This document shows, piece after piece, positions 50,044 through 59,417 of a stretch of 64,000 nucleotides of DNA. This DNA comes from Chitinophagaceae bacterium (lineage in GTDB: Bacteria > Bacteroidota > Bacteroidia > Chitinophagales > Chitinophagaceae). Positions within the stretch are counted from its first letter, which is position 1. Each line of letters begins with the position of its first letter. The translations under genes and the position numbers were made by a program. The stretch lies in assembly GCA_947454235.1 (NCBI GenBank), contig CANGIY010000016.1, forward strand, positions 1 through 64,000. The letters are read 5' to 3'. The notes below the pieces were generated by a model. That model worked only from the letters and a program-made list of their open reading frames with translations, ran no database searches and had not been told where the DNA came from.

Positions 50044-50802
50044 TTAATCTTCTTTCGTGAATTTCTTGATTGCAACTACATCGCCTTTGACATCAATGAA
50101 TTTTAAAAAGTACACGCCCGAAGGTATACTCTCAATATTTAGGTTTGCACTTGCACCATCGAATTTATAGACGTTTACAAGCTTACCAATTACATTGTAA
50201 ATGCAAATCGTATTCGATTCCTGGGTGTAGCTATAGATTACATTTACTTCGTTTTTGGCAGGGTTGGGATAGAGGCTAATTTCATTGTTGACGATTTTTT
50301 CAACTACAGGGGCTTCTGTCGGAAATTTATTGACTATAAATGTTACAAATTTAGTAGGTGCAAGCGACCCGCCAATAGACTGCCAAGAGCAAGTTAGGTA
50401 GTGCGTTCCATTACTGGCATGTGCCAAATCGAGCACCAAATCGAAATTCGCTTTTTGCCCGGGGCGTATGGTGTCAGAGATAAATGAACCTAACGACGAA
50501 ACATTGGAAATACAGTTCCATAAAAAAGTATCTCTGTCATTTTGCCTGCATGTCTTGTTATCACAAATTCCCAAAATGGAGGTGTCAGCCCAATCCCTCG
50601 GAAAATCTGTAGCTGTAATTTTCCACTTAACAACAATTTTATTCGCATCAGCACTTACCATATTATTGTACACACTTAGCGGACTTCCATTCCAACTGGC
50701 GTAAACAGTATCGCCTTTATCAGGAGTAACACCCTGTGCAAGTACTGCACCAACCGGCATACACAATAAAATAGAGGTAAGTAATGATAGAATGAACTTC
50801 AT
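50044..50802 (-). CDS. Small T9SS-exported Ig-like protein, copy 2
   Basis: This 252-residue protein has a signal peptide (about 1-22, AVLAQG). Its beta-sandwich domain (about 25-155) has SILGICDNKTCRQNDRDT, with two cysteines that could form a disulfide, and HASNGTHYLTCSW. The type A T9SS tail (about 175-252) has LYPNPAKNEVNVIY, SGVYFLKFID and ends KKFTKED. It is a tandem paralogue of the gene at 50978, of identical length. No enzyme motif is visible; binding or adhesion is likely. The gene has its own terminator. Confidence 0.85.
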   Translation of the reverse strand: MKFILSLLTSILLCMPVGAVLAQGVTPDKGDTVYASWNGSPLSVYNNMVSADANKIVVKWKITATDFPRDWADTSILGICDNKTCRQNDRDTFLWNCISNVSSLGSFISDTIRPGQKANFDLVLDLAHASNGTHYLTCSWQSIGGSLAPTKFVTFIVNKFPTEAPVVEKIVNNEISLYPNPAKNEVNVIYSYTQESNTICIYNVIGKLVNVYKFDGASANLNIESIPSGVYFLKFIDVKGDVVAIKKFTKED

Positions 50803-50977: not shown

Positions 50978-51736
50978 TTAATCTTCTTTCGTGAATTTCT
51001 TAACTGCAACAACATCACCTTTAGAATCGATGAACTTGAGGAAGTAAATACCTGAAGGAATATTTTCAATGTTTAGGTTAGCGCTAGCACCATCAAATTT
51101 GTAAACACTTACAATTTTACCGATGATGTTGTAGATGCAAATTGTGTTTGACTCTTGAGCGTATCCGTAAATAACATTGATTTCCTTCTTAGCAGGGTTA
51201 GGATACATTGAAATTTCATGGTTAGTTACTTTTTCAACAGCAGGGGTTTCAGTTGGGAATTTGTTGATTACAAAAGTTACATACTTTACAGGGTAAATTG
51301 AACTTCCTACTGCTTGCCAAGAACAAGTCATGTAGTGTGTACCATTACTTGCATGTGTAAGGTCTAGCACCAAATCAAATGTACCCGTATCACCAGCGTT
51401 AATTACGTTTGAAGTAAACAAAGTATTTGATGGGCGACTTGTAAGGCTGTTCCACAACAATGTGTCACGGTCGTTCTGTCTGCAAATATTGTTGTCGCAA
51501 ATACCAAGGATTGAAGTATCAGACCAATCTCTAGGGAAATCGGAAGCAGTTACTTTCCATTTAACGCGTAGAGTGCCAGTATCAGCACTTACCATGTTAT
51601 TATAAACGGCCATAGGAGTACCACTCCATGTTGCATATACGGTATCGCCACGCTCAGGATTAACTCCTTGTGCACTCGATGTATTAGATGAAAATAGACC
51701 TAATAAAGCTATTAAAAAAGGTAAAAACTTTCTCAT
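50978..51736 (-). CDS. Small T9SS-exported Ig-like protein, copy 1
   Basis: This 252-residue protein parallels its neighbour at 50044 along the whole length. It has a signal peptide (about 1-22, SSAQG), a domain with SILGICDNNICRQNDRDT and HASNGTHYMTCSW, and a T9SS tail (MYPNPAKKEINVIY, SGIYFLKFID, KKFTKED). The C-terminal about 90 residues are nearly identical between copies, while the N-terminal passenger is more diverged. Each copy has its own terminator, so they are separate units produced by tandem duplication. The function is unknown. Confidence 0.85.
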   Translation of the reverse strand: MRKFLPFLIALLGLFSSNTSSAQGVNPERGDTVYATWSGTPMAVYNNMVSADTGTLRVKWKVTASDFPRDWSDTSILGICDNNICRQNDRDTLLWNSLTSRPSNTLFTSNVINAGDTGTFDLVLDLTHASNGTHYMTCSWQAVGSSIYPVKYVTFVINKFPTETPAVEKVTNHEISMYPNPAKKEINVIYGYAQESNTICIYNIIGKIVSVYKFDGASANLNIENIPSGIYFLKFIDSKGDVVAVKKFTKED

Positions 51737-55567: not shown

Positions 55568-56827
55568 ATGGGAATCGTCAATAATAAAAAAATCTTAGAA
55601 ATGCCCGGGTATTTGGGCAAATGGTTGCTTCGGGCGGCAGTGTTGGCGCTGCCTGTAGGTACCATCGTTGCATTCTTTTTATGGTCGCTCGATAAAGTAG
55701 TAAGTACGTTTAATGCGTACCAGGGATTTCTTTTCGCTTTGCCATTGGCAGGTATTGCTATACATTTTCTCTACAAGGCATGGGGTAAAAGTGCAGAGGC
55801 GGGAAACAATTTAATTATTGACGAAATTCACCAACCGGGTGGCGGAGTTCCATTCAGGATGGCGCCCTTAGTTTTAGTTACAACTTTAATCACGCATCTG
55901 TTTGGCGGTTCCGCCGGGAGGGAAGGAACTGCGGTTCAAATAGGTGGTGGCTTAGCTGGCTATCTTTCTAAAAAGCTAGGCCTAAACCACGAAGATGTAA
56001 AAGTGTTCCTGATGATGGGTATTTCAGCCGGTTTTGGGGCGGTATTCGGAACACCCATTGCAGGAGCCATATTCGCAATCGAAGTTCTTACCATCGGTCG
56101 GTTTAAATACCAGGCAATTGTACCATGCATATTAGCTGCCGTTTTTGCCGATAGGGTGTGTATGTTTTATCCGGTACACCATACGCACTACAACATAGCT
56201 TCTGGTTTTTTACCGACGGGTATGTGGGGCTTTACTAAATTCGGATTGGCATTATTGTTTTCCGGTGTTGCTTTTGGTTTGGCTGCACGACTGTTCGCCT
56301 CTCTCACCCACAACATCAAAGACAACGGAAAGAAAATATTTAAGAAACACTTGTGGTTAATGCCCGCAACGGGGGGCGTTGTTATTATTTGCCTCACATT
56401 TGCTGTAGGCAATTGTGATTTTAACTGTTTAGGAGTCACAGGCACTAACCCCGATAGCTGTTCAATAGTCAATGCATTCGTTCCTAGCGGCGGTAATAAC
56501 TGGGGGTGGTTGCTGAAACTCGTGTTTACTGCCATTACAATAGGTTCTGGTTTCAAGGGTGGGGAGGTGACACCATTATTTTTCATTGGTGCCACCTTGG
56601 GCAAAGCACTCGCATTGCAATTTGGTTTACCCGTTGACCTATGGGCAGGACTTGGTTTTATAGCAGTATTCGCTGGCGCAGCCAACACACCTCTGGCATG
56701 TGCTGTAATGGGTGTAGAATTATTCGGCGGAACTTATTTTATTTACTTCTTAGCTGCATGCTTCATCGCATTCGCTGTAAGTGGTAAAAAGGGTATTTAC
56801 AGTGCGCAACGAGTGAGAAGGGGTTAA
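55568..56827 (+). CDS. eriC: CLC-F type fluoride/proton antiporter
   Basis: This 419-residue membrane protein has the CLC fold with about 10-12 hydrophobic segments. The gating glutamate is Glu119 in GGSAGREGTAVQ. The anion-coordinating Ser motif GSGIP of chloride CLCs is replaced by GNNLI (79-83), placing Asn80 39 residues before Glu119, the same spacing as Met79/Glu118 in the Enterococcus CLC-F. Later motifs GSGFKGGEVTPLFFIG also fit. CLC-F proteins expel fluoride in exchange for protons. The fluoride riboswitch directly upstream makes this role nearly certain. It ends 5 bases from the convergent Panacea operon. Confidence 0.92.
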   Translation: MGIVNNKKILEMPGYLGKWLLRAAVLALPVGTIVAFFLWSLDKVVSTFNAYQGFLFALPLAGIAIHFLYKAWGKSAEAGNNLIIDEIHQPGGGVPFRMAPLVLVTTLITHLFGGSAGREGTAVQIGGGLAGYLSKKLGLNHEDVKVFLMMGISAGFGAVFGTPIAGAIFAIEVLTIGRFKYQAIVPCILAAVFADRVCMFYPVHHTHYNIASGFLPTGMWGFTKFGLALLFSGVAFGLAARLFASLTHNIKDNGKKIFKKHLWLMPATGGVVIICLTFAVGNCDFNCLGVTGTNPDSCSIVNAFVPSGGNNWGWLLKLVFTAITIGSGFKGGEVTPLFFIGATLGKALALQFGLPVDLWAGLGFIAVFAGAANTPLACAVMGVELFGGTYFIYFLAACFIAFAVSGKKGIYSAQRVRRG

Positions 56828-56832
56828 AACAA

Positions 56833-57285
56833 TTACCAGTTCTGCATCATCTTCCTGAACTTGTTTTTCAGGCTTGACGAGTTTTTCAGGCAATCGATAA
56901 TTTCGCGATACATAGCATCAGATATTTTTCCGCAATACTCGTAGTTTTCATCTTTTACCCTGTAGGTTAAACTTAGAGTTTCAACTGAATAGTCTTCCAC
57001 CCATTTACCATAAATGAAAGTATTGAGCCTGAATGAATACCCTAAGTCTGTGACTGATTTACCTTTTCCAATACAATAACAATTAAAACTCACCTCTGGC
57101 AAATCAATGCAGCCTTCCTTTAGATTATTATCCGGAAACGGGACATACATCTGACTTGTCGGTAGGTTGGCAAGAATAACATCTTCGCCAATTTGTTTCA
57201 ATACAAGAAAATACTTTGGTGAGGCTGCATTGCCGTCTTTAAATTAAAATGGCGTGCAGTATAAAAGTGATTTCTCTTCAAACAC
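56833..57285 (-). pseudogene. Interrupted partner of the Panacea antitoxin (MazF/PemK-like pattern)
   Basis: A frame starting with GTG at 57285, two bases after the antitoxin stop, reads 13 codons (MFEEKSLLYCTPF), meets TAA at 57244-57246, then stays open to 56833 with no internal ATG near the break. Residues flanking the stop join as LYCTPF-stop-FKDGNAASPKYFLVLKQ. This looks like the first strands of a MazF/PemK SH3-like barrel (xLVxPFxFxDG...PxLVL). The rest (LANLPTS, FRLNTFIYG) has no named motif. A TTG at 57201 could in principle start a 122-residue product. Its position suggests the toxin of a PanAT system, now probably inactive. Confidence 0.6.
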
Positions 57286-57287
57286 CT

Positions 57288-57899
57288 TTAAGCCGATTTT
57301 AAAGAATTATTAAAATCAAGCATTTCAAGCTGGTTATAGTAAAAGTCACGAATCTCCTTTCTTTCAATCAAATCACCGAAATCCAGAATAATGTCGCTTG
57401 TGGTTTGTTTCCTGGATTCAAATCGCTCCATCAAACCATCTTCTTTTGAAACTGTTTTATGCCATAACGATGTGCCCTTGTGGGTAATGAATACAAGATG
57501 TTGCGCATCATGGAATTTAAATTCCTGAGCAATGTGTTGCAATATCAACATTTCATCTTCACTAAACTCATCGTCGTTAAATGCCTTCAATGGTTTTACA
57601 AGGTATTTATTGCCATCAAACTCATTGGAAACGAATTCAGAAATCAAACTTGAGCCTTTCAGACTGGGGTCGAGATTTGCCCAAAGCTCCCTTTGAACAG
57701 GTCCAAATTGCCACGCGTAAAACGGAACTCCCAGAAACGGAGTAGCATGGTTTTTCACGAATAGCTCCTCGGCTAAATACACAAGCTTCAACAGCTTGGT
57801 TTTAGATAGTTCATTCGTGTTTTCAGCAAAATAAGTAGCTACATTGCCCATTCGGTTGATTTGGTCAATTGTGAGGTTGCTTTTTATTCTTGGCGACAT
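57288..57899 (-). CDS. Panacea-domain antitoxin (DUF4065, PanA/SocA-like)
   Basis: This 203-residue protein carries the Panacea (DUF4065) domain: IDQINRMGNVATYF, LSKTKLLKLVYLAEELFVKN, then PFYAWQFGPVQRELW and a C-terminal helical block with FSEDEMLILQHIAQEF. This domain was first seen in the ClpXP adaptor SocA and defines hyper-promiscuous antitoxins (PanA) that neutralise many unrelated toxins. A broken reading frame starts two bases after its stop, as expected for its toxin partner. It is intact and cytosolic. It could alternatively act as a proteolysis adaptor. Confidence 0.85.
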   Translation of the reverse strand: MSPRIKSNLTIDQINRMGNVATYFAENTNELSKTKLLKLVYLAEELFVKNHATPFLGVPFYAWQFGPVQRELWANLDPSLKGSSLISEFVSNEFDGNKYLVKPLKAFNDDEFSEDEMLILQHIAQEFKFHDAQHLVFITHKGTSLWHKTVSKEDGLMERFESRKQTTSDIILDFGDLIERKEIRDFYYNQLEMLDFNNSLKSA

Positions 57900-58103: not shown

Positions 58104-59417
58104 ATGCCCGGATTTACAGTTGCCATAGTGGGTAGGCCGAATGTTGGAAAGTCAACTTTATTTAATCGCTTGCTTGAACAACGCAAGGCAATCGTCGATG
58201 ACATTAGCGGTGTAACCCGCGACCGTCAGTACGGCGACGCTGAATGGAATGGCAAAACATTCAATGTCATTGATACGGGAGGCTTTGTAGCCAGAAGTGA
58301 AGACGTTTTTGAAAAAGAGATACGCAAACAAGTTCAAATAGCCGTAGATGAGGCAGATTTGATCCTTTTTGTTTGTGACACCATCACAGGTATCACCGAC
58401 CAGGATTCAGATATGGCTGATGTGTTGCGTAGGTCGACAAAGCCGGTGCTGTTGGTTGTCAATAAAGTAGACAACTCTGAAAGAGCATTGTTAGCGACAG
58501 AATTCTATGCGCTTGGTTTCGAACACGTGTACATGCTGTCATCAATTTCAGGCAGTGGTACAGGTGAATTGCTCGATGCAGTAGTAGATTTCATTCCGGA
58601 AGATGCTGGAGATGCCAATGCAGAAGATGCACTGCCAAAATTTGCCATCATCGGTCAACCGAATGCAGGTAAATCAACGCTCCTGAATGCATTATTGAAT
58701 CAGGAGAGAACTATTGTATCAGACGTAGCAGGTACAACCCGCGATACCATACATACACACTATAAACTATTCGGCAAAGAGTTTTGGCTGATAGATACTG
58801 CCGGTATCAGGAAGAAGAAAAACGTTTCTGAAGACCTTGAGTTCTATTCGGTTATCCGTGCCATTCGTGCCATGGAAGAAGCCGATGTGTGTATGTTATT
58901 GATTGATGCTGCTGTAGGTGTAACATCTCAGGATGTAGCAATTTTCAGTTTGGCTACCCGTAAGGGAAAAGGTTGTGTGATACTCGTGAACAAGTGGGAT
59001 ACCATGACCAAGGAAACCAACACTGCGCGCGACTACGAGAAAGAGATCAAAAAACGCATTGCGCCACTTACCGATATCCCGGTGATATTCGTTTCGGCTA
59101 AAGACAAGACGCGCATATTCCAGGCCATGGAAAAAGCCCTTGAAGTGCACGAAAACAGAATCAGGAAAATACCTACTTCTCAGCTCAACGATATCATGCT
59201 GAAGGAGATAGAGCACTTCCCACCACCAATGACACGTGGTTATTCAGTAAAAATCAAGTTTGTGCAGCAGGTGCCTACGTTTGTACCGTCGTTTGCCTTT
59301 TACGCCAACCACCCCGATGGCGTTAAAGAACCATATAAAAACTTCCTTGAAAATAAATTGCGTAGCCACTTCAAGTTCAGCGGTGTGCCTATCAGAATTT
59401 TCATTCGTAAAAAATAG
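58104..59417 (+). CDS. der: GTPase Der (EngA), ribosome assembly
   Basis: This 437-residue protein has two tandem GTPase domains and a KH-like C-terminus. The first has GRPNVGKS (10-17), DTGG and NKVD (120-123). The second has GQPNAGKS (184-191), DTAG and NKWD. The last about 80 residues form the RNA-binding KH-like domain (KIKFVQQVPTFVPSFAFYANHP). Der binds the 50S ribosomal subunit and is essential for its maturation. It is monocistronic with a promoter element and terminator. Confidence 0.97.
   Translation: MPGFTVAIVGRPNVGKSTLFNRLLEQRKAIVDDISGVTRDRQYGDAEWNGKTFNVIDTGGFVARSEDVFEKEIRKQVQIAVDEADLILFVCDTITGITDQDSDMADVLRRSTKPVLLVVNKVDNSERALLATEFYALGFEHVYMLSSISGSGTGELLDAVVDFIPEDAGDANAEDALPKFAIIGQPNAGKSTLLNALLNQERTIVSDVAGTTRDTIHTHYKLFGKEFWLIDTAGIRKKKNVSEDLEFYSVIRAIRAMEEADVCMLLIDAAVGVTSQDVAIFSLATRKGKGCVILVNKWDTMTKETNTARDYEKEIKKRIAPLTDIPVIFVSAKDKTRIFQAMEKALEVHENRIRKIPTSQLNDIMLKEIEHFPPPMTRGYSVKIKFVQQVPTFVPSFAFYANHPDGVKEPYKNFLENKLRSHFKFSGVPIRIFIRKK

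What the first reader, a model, noticed from the sequence alone, without database searches (positions are those of the whole stretch)
56833..57899. Panacea (PanA-like) operon whose toxin-position gene is broken by an in-frame stop
An intact DUF4065 gene is followed two bases after its stop by a GTG-started frame on the same strand. The frame reads 13 codons, hits TAA (57244-57246), then continues open for about 137 codons. The residues on both sides of the stop join into a convincing MazF/PemK-like first strand pair, so the stop looks like a recent nonsense mutation rather than a spacer. PanA antitoxins pair with very diverse toxins, so the partner may be a little-studied family. Loss of toxin with retained antitoxin would be a snapshot of TA decay or an anti-addiction state.
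Basis: partly seen in the sequence, partly recalled or inferred. Interest (0 to 1): 0.75.

Follow-up and report, generated by a model that had tools for sequence, protein, structure and literature searches.

The report
Antitoxin kept, partner toxin gene broken
In this bacterial toxin-antitoxin gene pair the antitoxin is intact while a stop codon early in the toxin gene appears to have switched the toxin off very recently, and several relatives show the same one-sided loss in a toxin family that the libraries searched here do not name.

Summary
On the minus strand an intact Panacea (PF13274) antitoxin gene (57899-57288) is followed after 2 bp by a GTG-started frame that stops after 13 codons (TAA 57246-57244) and then stays open for 136 codons. 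The frame is a real toxin-position gene: 25 strong homologues (window included) all lie directly behind a PF13274 gene (gap -8 to +5 bp), and 20 of 25 are intact, starting before the stop position. Against the nearest relative, the 13 residues before the stop are identical despite 6 nucleotide differences, and the rest evolves no faster than the antitoxin. So the stop is a very recent nonsense mutation; an assembly error is not excluded. Five of 25 toxins are broken, at different places, against none of 24 complete antitoxins; one weaker relative shows the reverse, and the asymmetry is only modestly significant. One genome has a toxin-less Panacea gene. The toxin family has no Pfam, PHROG or PDB sequence match; low-confidence models resemble MazF/Kid but are not separated from unrelated folds. 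Two phage-like contigs carry the intact pair. Overall: a new member of the known PanAT kind, caught at toxin loss; why the antitoxin persists is open.

The parts
57288..57899 (-). intact Panacea-domain (PF13274) antitoxin gene, 203 aa, ATG start
   Evidence: the only PF13274 match found in its genome; 68% identical to the PanA of L003
57247..57285 (-). first 13 codons of the toxin-position gene (GTG start), in front of the nonsense codon
   Evidence: 13 of 13 residues identical to L003 with 6 nucleotide differences
57244..57246 (-). in-frame TAA at residue 14 of the toxin frame
   Evidence: column is Y or F in 16 of 20 intact strong relatives
56833..57243 (-). remaining 136 codons and own stop of the toxin frame, no further stop; contains the 122-aa TTG-started ORF 57201-56833
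   Evidence: 68% identical to L003, pN 0.20 against 0.21 for the antitoxin; keeps 17 of 17 columns invariant among 12 intact toxins
55568..56827 (+). convergent neighbour: voltage-gated chloride channel (PF00654), ends 5 bp from the toxin frame; context only
58104..59417 (+). divergent neighbour: Der/EngA-type GTPase (PF01926, PF14714); context only

Best explanation
The locus is a two-gene toxin-antitoxin operon of the Panacea (PanAT) kind whose toxin gene was very recently inactivated by a nonsense mutation at codon 14, leaving an intact antitoxin. SHOWN by sequence: a conserved antitoxin-first pair; a toxin frame that was under purifying selection like the antitoxin until recently; a stop in a mostly aromatic column; the same one-sided breakage, with different lesions, in four other genomes. 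INFERRED: the toxin blocks growth, perhaps as a MazF-like RNase that stops translation; PanA binds and neutralises it; a 13-residue peptide is inactive, and restart at the internal TTG would lack the first predicted strand. Toxin loss is tolerated because the antitoxin is still there, whereas antitoxin loss beside an active toxin is lethal, so decay tends to start in the toxin. The antitoxin is then either not yet hit by decay or kept for another use.
For: PF13274 gene directly upstream in 25 of 25 strong loci, gap -8 to +5 bp. Toxin and antitoxin distances correlate over 22 of these loci, r 0.80, 0 of 2000 permutations reach it. 13 of 13 pre-stop residues identical with 6 nucleotide differences; 17 of 17 columns invariant among 12 intact toxins kept; no consistent excess of window-specific changes in the toxin against 11 outgroups. 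Broken toxin with open antitoxin frame in 5 of 25: window, G340 and G750 (nonsense at residues 14, 23, 94), G046 and G727 (frameshift); 0 of 24 complete antitoxins broken. G607 keeps a PanA (PF13274 48.9 bits) with no toxin found near it. No tRNA with anticodon TTA called.
Against: No reads: one wrong base would give the same picture, and an otherwise pristine frame is what an error would look like. The asymmetry is modest: Fisher one-sided p 0.028 for 5/25 against 0/24, 0.060 without the window, 0.105 with the six weak relatives, where G051 has a frameshifted PanA beside an open toxin frame. G340 keeps only 12 of 17 invariant columns, so its loss looks older than the window's. Toxicity and neutralisation are untested. 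Fold models have mean pLDDT 57.
Confidence: 0.8

Rival explanations
1. Sequencing or assembly error: the toxin gene is intact in the cell and the TAA is a miscalled base in the assembly.
For: Everything else in the frame is pristine. Read data were not available; I had no second strain of the species.
Against: The assembly is listed with 47 contigs, completeness 100 and contamination 1.47. Breakage of the same gene in four other genomes, with stops and frameshifts at different sites, makes real loss in this family plausible, though the same caveat applies to each of them.
Confidence: 0.15
2. The stop is bypassed: readthrough, a suppressor tRNA, or internal restart at TTG 57201 gives a working or regulatory product, and the stop tunes toxin dose.
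For: Frame well conserved after the stop; a hairpin is predicted over the stop, z -2.15, 5 of 200 shuffles fold as well. G750 also has a single stop in a frame that keeps 17 of 17 invariant columns.
Against: No tRNA with a TTA anticodon was called at the 33 listed tRNA places; but one partial place gave no call and the first look scored only 150 of 258 candidates, so the list may be incomplete. The stops of the three nonsense loci are at residues 14, 23 and 94, so there is no shared recoding site. Restart at 57201 would lose the first predicted strand and part of the second.
Confidence: 0.05
3. The antitoxin is kept by selection: PanA has an independent benefit, such as neutralising toxins of incoming phages that carry the same pair (anti-addiction), or a sensor or regulatory role.
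For: PanA frames are open in all five strong loci with broken toxins and in the toxin-less G607; two viral contigs carry the pair intact.
Against: Loss may be too recent for PanA to have decayed. G511 has a 63-residue PanA remnant and no toxin found, and G607's PanA has a replaced C-terminus, so solo PanAs also change or decay. No direct test.
Confidence: 0.2

Closest known systems
PanAT systems (Panacea/DUF4065 antitoxin with diverse toxins), Kurata et al. 2022, PMC8832971 (abstract, section 5 part 1 and found passages seen)
   Same: Panacea domain; two adjacent genes; antitoxin first; partner often without a domain hit. The paper names two PanTs predicted by HHpred to resemble EndoA/PemK/MazF and shown to inhibit protein synthesis.
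   Different: This toxin is broken. Whether its family is one of the paper's 88 toxin clusters could not be checked (its datasets were not readable here).
NetFlax network of TA systems, PMC10440598 (passages seen)
   Same: MazF/PemK listed among the common folds; Panacea-containing systems the largest group.
   Different: Deals with gene pairs; 'orphan' does not occur in its main text.
MazF/PemK/Kid toxins (PF02452)
   Same: Structural neighbours of two low-confidence models.
   Different: PF02452 is not among the Pfam matches of any of 18 family members at E up to 5; profile comparison not significant; family members are 145-153 aa against mostly 106-119 aa in the PF02452 set; partner is Panacea.
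Orphan antitoxins of the Klebsiella pneumoniae complex, PMC7192599 (passages seen)
   Same: Antitoxins without a working toxin are abundant; degraded pairs and anti-addiction are proposed there as explanations.
   Different: Other species; here the single first lesion and apparent later stages in relatives are seen for one Panacea family.
SocA (NCBIfam NF047745)
   Same: Match over residues 3-153, 52.2 bits.
   Different: Far below the equivalog cut-off of 190 bits.

Membership tests
PanAT toxin-antitoxin systems | Panacea (PF13274/DUF4065) domain in one gene | tested here: met
   59.6 bits against cut-off 25.7; over the cut-off in 25 of 25 strong loci
[quoted passage not shown]
   25 of 25 strong loci, gap -8 to +5 bp
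PanAT toxin-antitoxin systems | Intact toxin gene in this copy | tested here: not met
   TAA at residue 14; 20 of 25 strong loci are intact
PanAT toxin-antitoxin systems | Toxin inhibits growth and PanA neutralises it by binding | not testable with these tools
   needs bench assays
MazF/PemK toxins | Match to PF02452 over its cut-off | tested here: not met
   0 of 18 family members list PF02452 at E up to 5; no PF02452 match in the window genome
MazF/PemK toxins | Profile-profile similarity to PF02452 proteins | tested here: inconclusive
   hhalign probability 2.3%, score 19.0, above the 16.4 maximum of 40 column shuffles but not significant
MazF/PemK toxins | MazF/Kid fold | tested here: inconclusive
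   models of mean pLDDT 56.7 and 57.0; 39 of 50 and 29 of 50 VIA-align rows name MazF or Kid, best Z 6.4 and 5.9, but ribosomal or Spindlin rows lie within 1 Z of them; Foldseek best E 0.15
MazF/PemK toxins | mRNA cleavage | not testable with these tools
   needs bench assays
SocAB (NF047745 equivalog) | Score over the curated cut-off | tested here: not met
   52.2 bits against 190

The most novel reading that the evidence does not exclude
This Panacea family is kept selectively after toxin loss: the pair spreads on phages, the toxin is repeatedly broken once it sits in a chromosome, and the solo PanA stays as immunity against phages or elements that carry the same toxin. The locus would then be a freshly made anti-addiction gene, and the toxin an unnamed family with a MazF-like fold but no recognisable MazF sequence.
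Probability: 0.17. Interest if true: 0.65.

Novelty: new member of a known kind. Interest (0 to 1): 0.42.

Why it matters
It shows what looks like the first step of toxin-antitoxin decay at single-codon resolution, with apparent later stages in relatives (frameshifts, toxin loss, antitoxin remnant). It adds a toxin family, absent from the libraries searched, to the partners of the hyperpromiscuous Panacea antitoxin, with copies in viral contigs. That makes the question whether solo antitoxins are kept as immunity or simply lag behind in decay directly testable.

Tried and rejected
Empty site: der orthologues were found in 8 of the 10 same-genus genomes; none of the eight has the ClC gene or the pair within 1.5 kb upstream, and the upstream genes differ, so no clean empty site could be shown.

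MazF by sequence: Pfam, NCBIfam, PDB sequences and hhalign gave nothing significant. My first PF02452 alignment held one wrongly chosen ORF (L069) and a long outlier (L083); both were dropped. A DUF5131 match at E 0.019 in 1 of 18 members, PHROG matches at 0.038 and above and PDB sequence hits at E 0.39 and above were taken as chance. VIA-align rows for the toxin models also include CcdB, ribosomal proteins and Spindlin.

INPHARED phage and PLSDB plasmid records: no match to the intact relative. PADLOC: one match at E 0.041, taken as chance. Inverted repeats around the operon: two weak pairs. The hairpin over the stop was not followed.

dN/dS against L003 could not be computed for the antitoxin and the post-stop part: synonymous sites are saturated; I used pN, identity and relative-rate counts.

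Dropped before counting: G1045 (E 8.1e-4; no Panacea gene seen directly upstream) and G907 (E 7.4e-4, 46 model positions; not examined further). Kept apart as weak: G051, G735, G807, G820, G895, G1015. In five of these six the upstream gene matches PF13274; G051's is frameshifted and was not scanned. G895's toxin may be frameshifted and was not counted as broken. G530's antitoxin is cut by the contig end and is left out of the antitoxin count.

Full report
OBSERVATION. The minus strand of the window carries a 203-aa Panacea-domain gene (57899-57288; PF13274, E 6.9e-16) and, 2 bp after its stop, a GTG-started frame that reads 13 codons, meets TAA at 57246-57244 and stays open for 136 further codons to 56833. 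The genome (4.17 Mb, 47 contigs) has one PF13274 match, one match to the toxin frame and no PF02452 match. The pair lies between a ClC channel gene and a der-type GTPase gene, among ordinary chromosomal genes.

THE TOXIN FRAME IS A REAL GENE. Homologues were sought in genome contigs (2 loci), in relatives (4 of 99 genomes), the order (6 of 396), the family (17 of 394), the class (11 of 395), the phylum (5 of 296), one other genus (2 of 5) and viral contigs (2 loci; a second scan returned one of them). The genome counts include the window's own genome, the sets overlap, and only some candidates per genome are scored, so they are lower bounds. Merged by hand these are 33 distinct loci: 25 strong (window included), 6 weak, 2 dropped as chance. 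In all 25 strong loci the gene directly upstream matches PF13274 over its cut-off (in G530 a part cut by the contig end), with a gap of -8 to +5 bp. Twenty of the 25 are intact, and all 20 start before the stop position. Toxin and antitoxin distances are correlated over 22 of the 25 loci (r 0.80; 0 of 2000 label permutations reach it; left out were the two frameshifted loci and G530).

THE STOP IS A RECENT LESION. The nearest relative is L003, an uncultured Bacteroidetes MAG: an intact 150-aa GTG-started gene directly behind its Panacea gene, 70% identical over the whole frame. The 13 residues before the stop are identical in both although 6 nucleotides differ, the mark of purifying selection on translated codons. 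After the stop, amino-acid identity is 0.68 and pN 0.20, against 0.68 and 0.21 for the antitoxin. Relative-rate counts with 11 outgroups show no consistent excess of window-specific changes in the toxin (5 to 12 against 4 to 11 for L003). The window keeps 17 of 17 columns invariant among 12 of the intact toxins, and the stop column is Y or F in 16 of the 20 intact toxins. A spacer or an old pseudogene would not look like this.

IT HAPPENED MORE THAN ONCE. Among the 25, five toxins are broken: the window (stop at residue 14), G340 (23), G750 (94), G046 and G727 (frameshifts). The antitoxin frame is open in all five, and none of the 24 complete antitoxins is broken. G750 still keeps 17 of 17 invariant columns, G340 only 12 of 17. 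One-sided Fisher p is 0.028, or 0.060 without the window, which was chosen for being broken. The weak set weakens it: G051 has a frameshifted Panacea gene beside an open distant toxin frame, and with all 31 loci p is 0.105. An antitoxin search (60 of 324 family genomes with any match) also found G607, a Panacea gene of this subfamily (168 bits; PF13274 48.9 bits) with no toxin match in the 9 kb around it and a replaced C-terminus, and G511, a 63-residue Panacea remnant 68% identical to the window's, again without a toxin match in 7 kb. Read together these look like successive stages: nonsense, frameshift, toxin deletion, antitoxin remnant. That order is inference.

WHAT THE TOXIN IS. Pfam gave only chance-level matches for 18 members (best E 0.019 to DUF5131 in one member), NCBIfam none at E up to 1 (window frame only), PHROGs nothing better than 0.038, PDB sequences nothing better than 0.39. 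Two AlphaFold models, led by L003 and by the viral protein L066, with five sequences each, have mean pLDDT 56.7 and 57.0. In the VIA-align lists 39 of 50 and 29 of 50 rows name MazF or Kid, and 8 more in each are toxins or endoribonucleases that I take, from recall, for the same family; best Z 6.4 (rmsd 3.3 over 87) and 5.9 (rmsd 3.5 over 88). Foldseek gave E 0.15 at best, also a MazF. Profile comparison with PF02452 proteins was not significant. MazF-like PanTs are known: Kurata et al. 2022 (PMC8832971; abstract, section 5 part 1 and passages seen).

MOBILITY. Two IMG/VR contigs carry the intact pair: L066 between genes that match a virion structural protein and tape-measure proteins, L067 near an endolysin gene. 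INPHARED phages and PLSDB plasmids gave no match. Ten same-genus genomes gave no match.

RIVALS. A miscalled base cannot be excluded without reads. Bypass of the stop is unlikely: no tRNA with a TTA anticodon was called at the 33 listed tRNA places (one partial place gave no call and not all candidates were scored), and the stops of the three nonsense loci fall at different positions. Selective retention of the antitoxin is possible and is the interesting version; nothing here separates it from decay that has not yet reached the antitoxin.

NOVELTY. A new member of a known kind (PanAT), with a toxin family unnamed in the libraries searched. Orphan antitoxins and degraded pairs are known (PMC7192599, passages seen). 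Literature searches on Panacea, DUF4065 and toxin decay were made; in the listings I saw no title or abstract start that describes this family or its decay, but only open-licence papers are held, listings are capped, and the cluster lists of Kurata et al. could not be read.

Noticed in passing
L066 2398-3453; L067 2424-3441: Intact Panacea antitoxin plus this toxin in two viral contigs, one between structural genes, one near an endolysin gene.
   Followed up: partly
L126 1414-2055 (G607), L144: Toxin-less Panacea gene of the same subfamily with a replaced C-terminus.
   Followed up: partly
L128 1480-1737 (G511), L145: N-terminal Panacea remnant (63 residues, 68% identical to the window's) running into unrelated sequence, no toxin found.
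   Followed up: partly
L055 (G051): Distant homologue whose Panacea gene is frameshifted while the toxin frame is open: the one reverse case.
   Followed up: partly
window 50044-50802 and 50978-51736: Two similar 252-aa proteins in tandem; the first has a secretion sorting tail (PF18962).
   Followed up: no
L155 1500-1783: ARAGORN calls an odd tRNA-Ser(act) between two tRNA-Val(tac) genes; possibly a false call.
   Followed up: no
L003 1990-3018: A transposase-like ORF (by its look, not searched) lies about 300 bp upstream of the intact pair.
   Followed up: no
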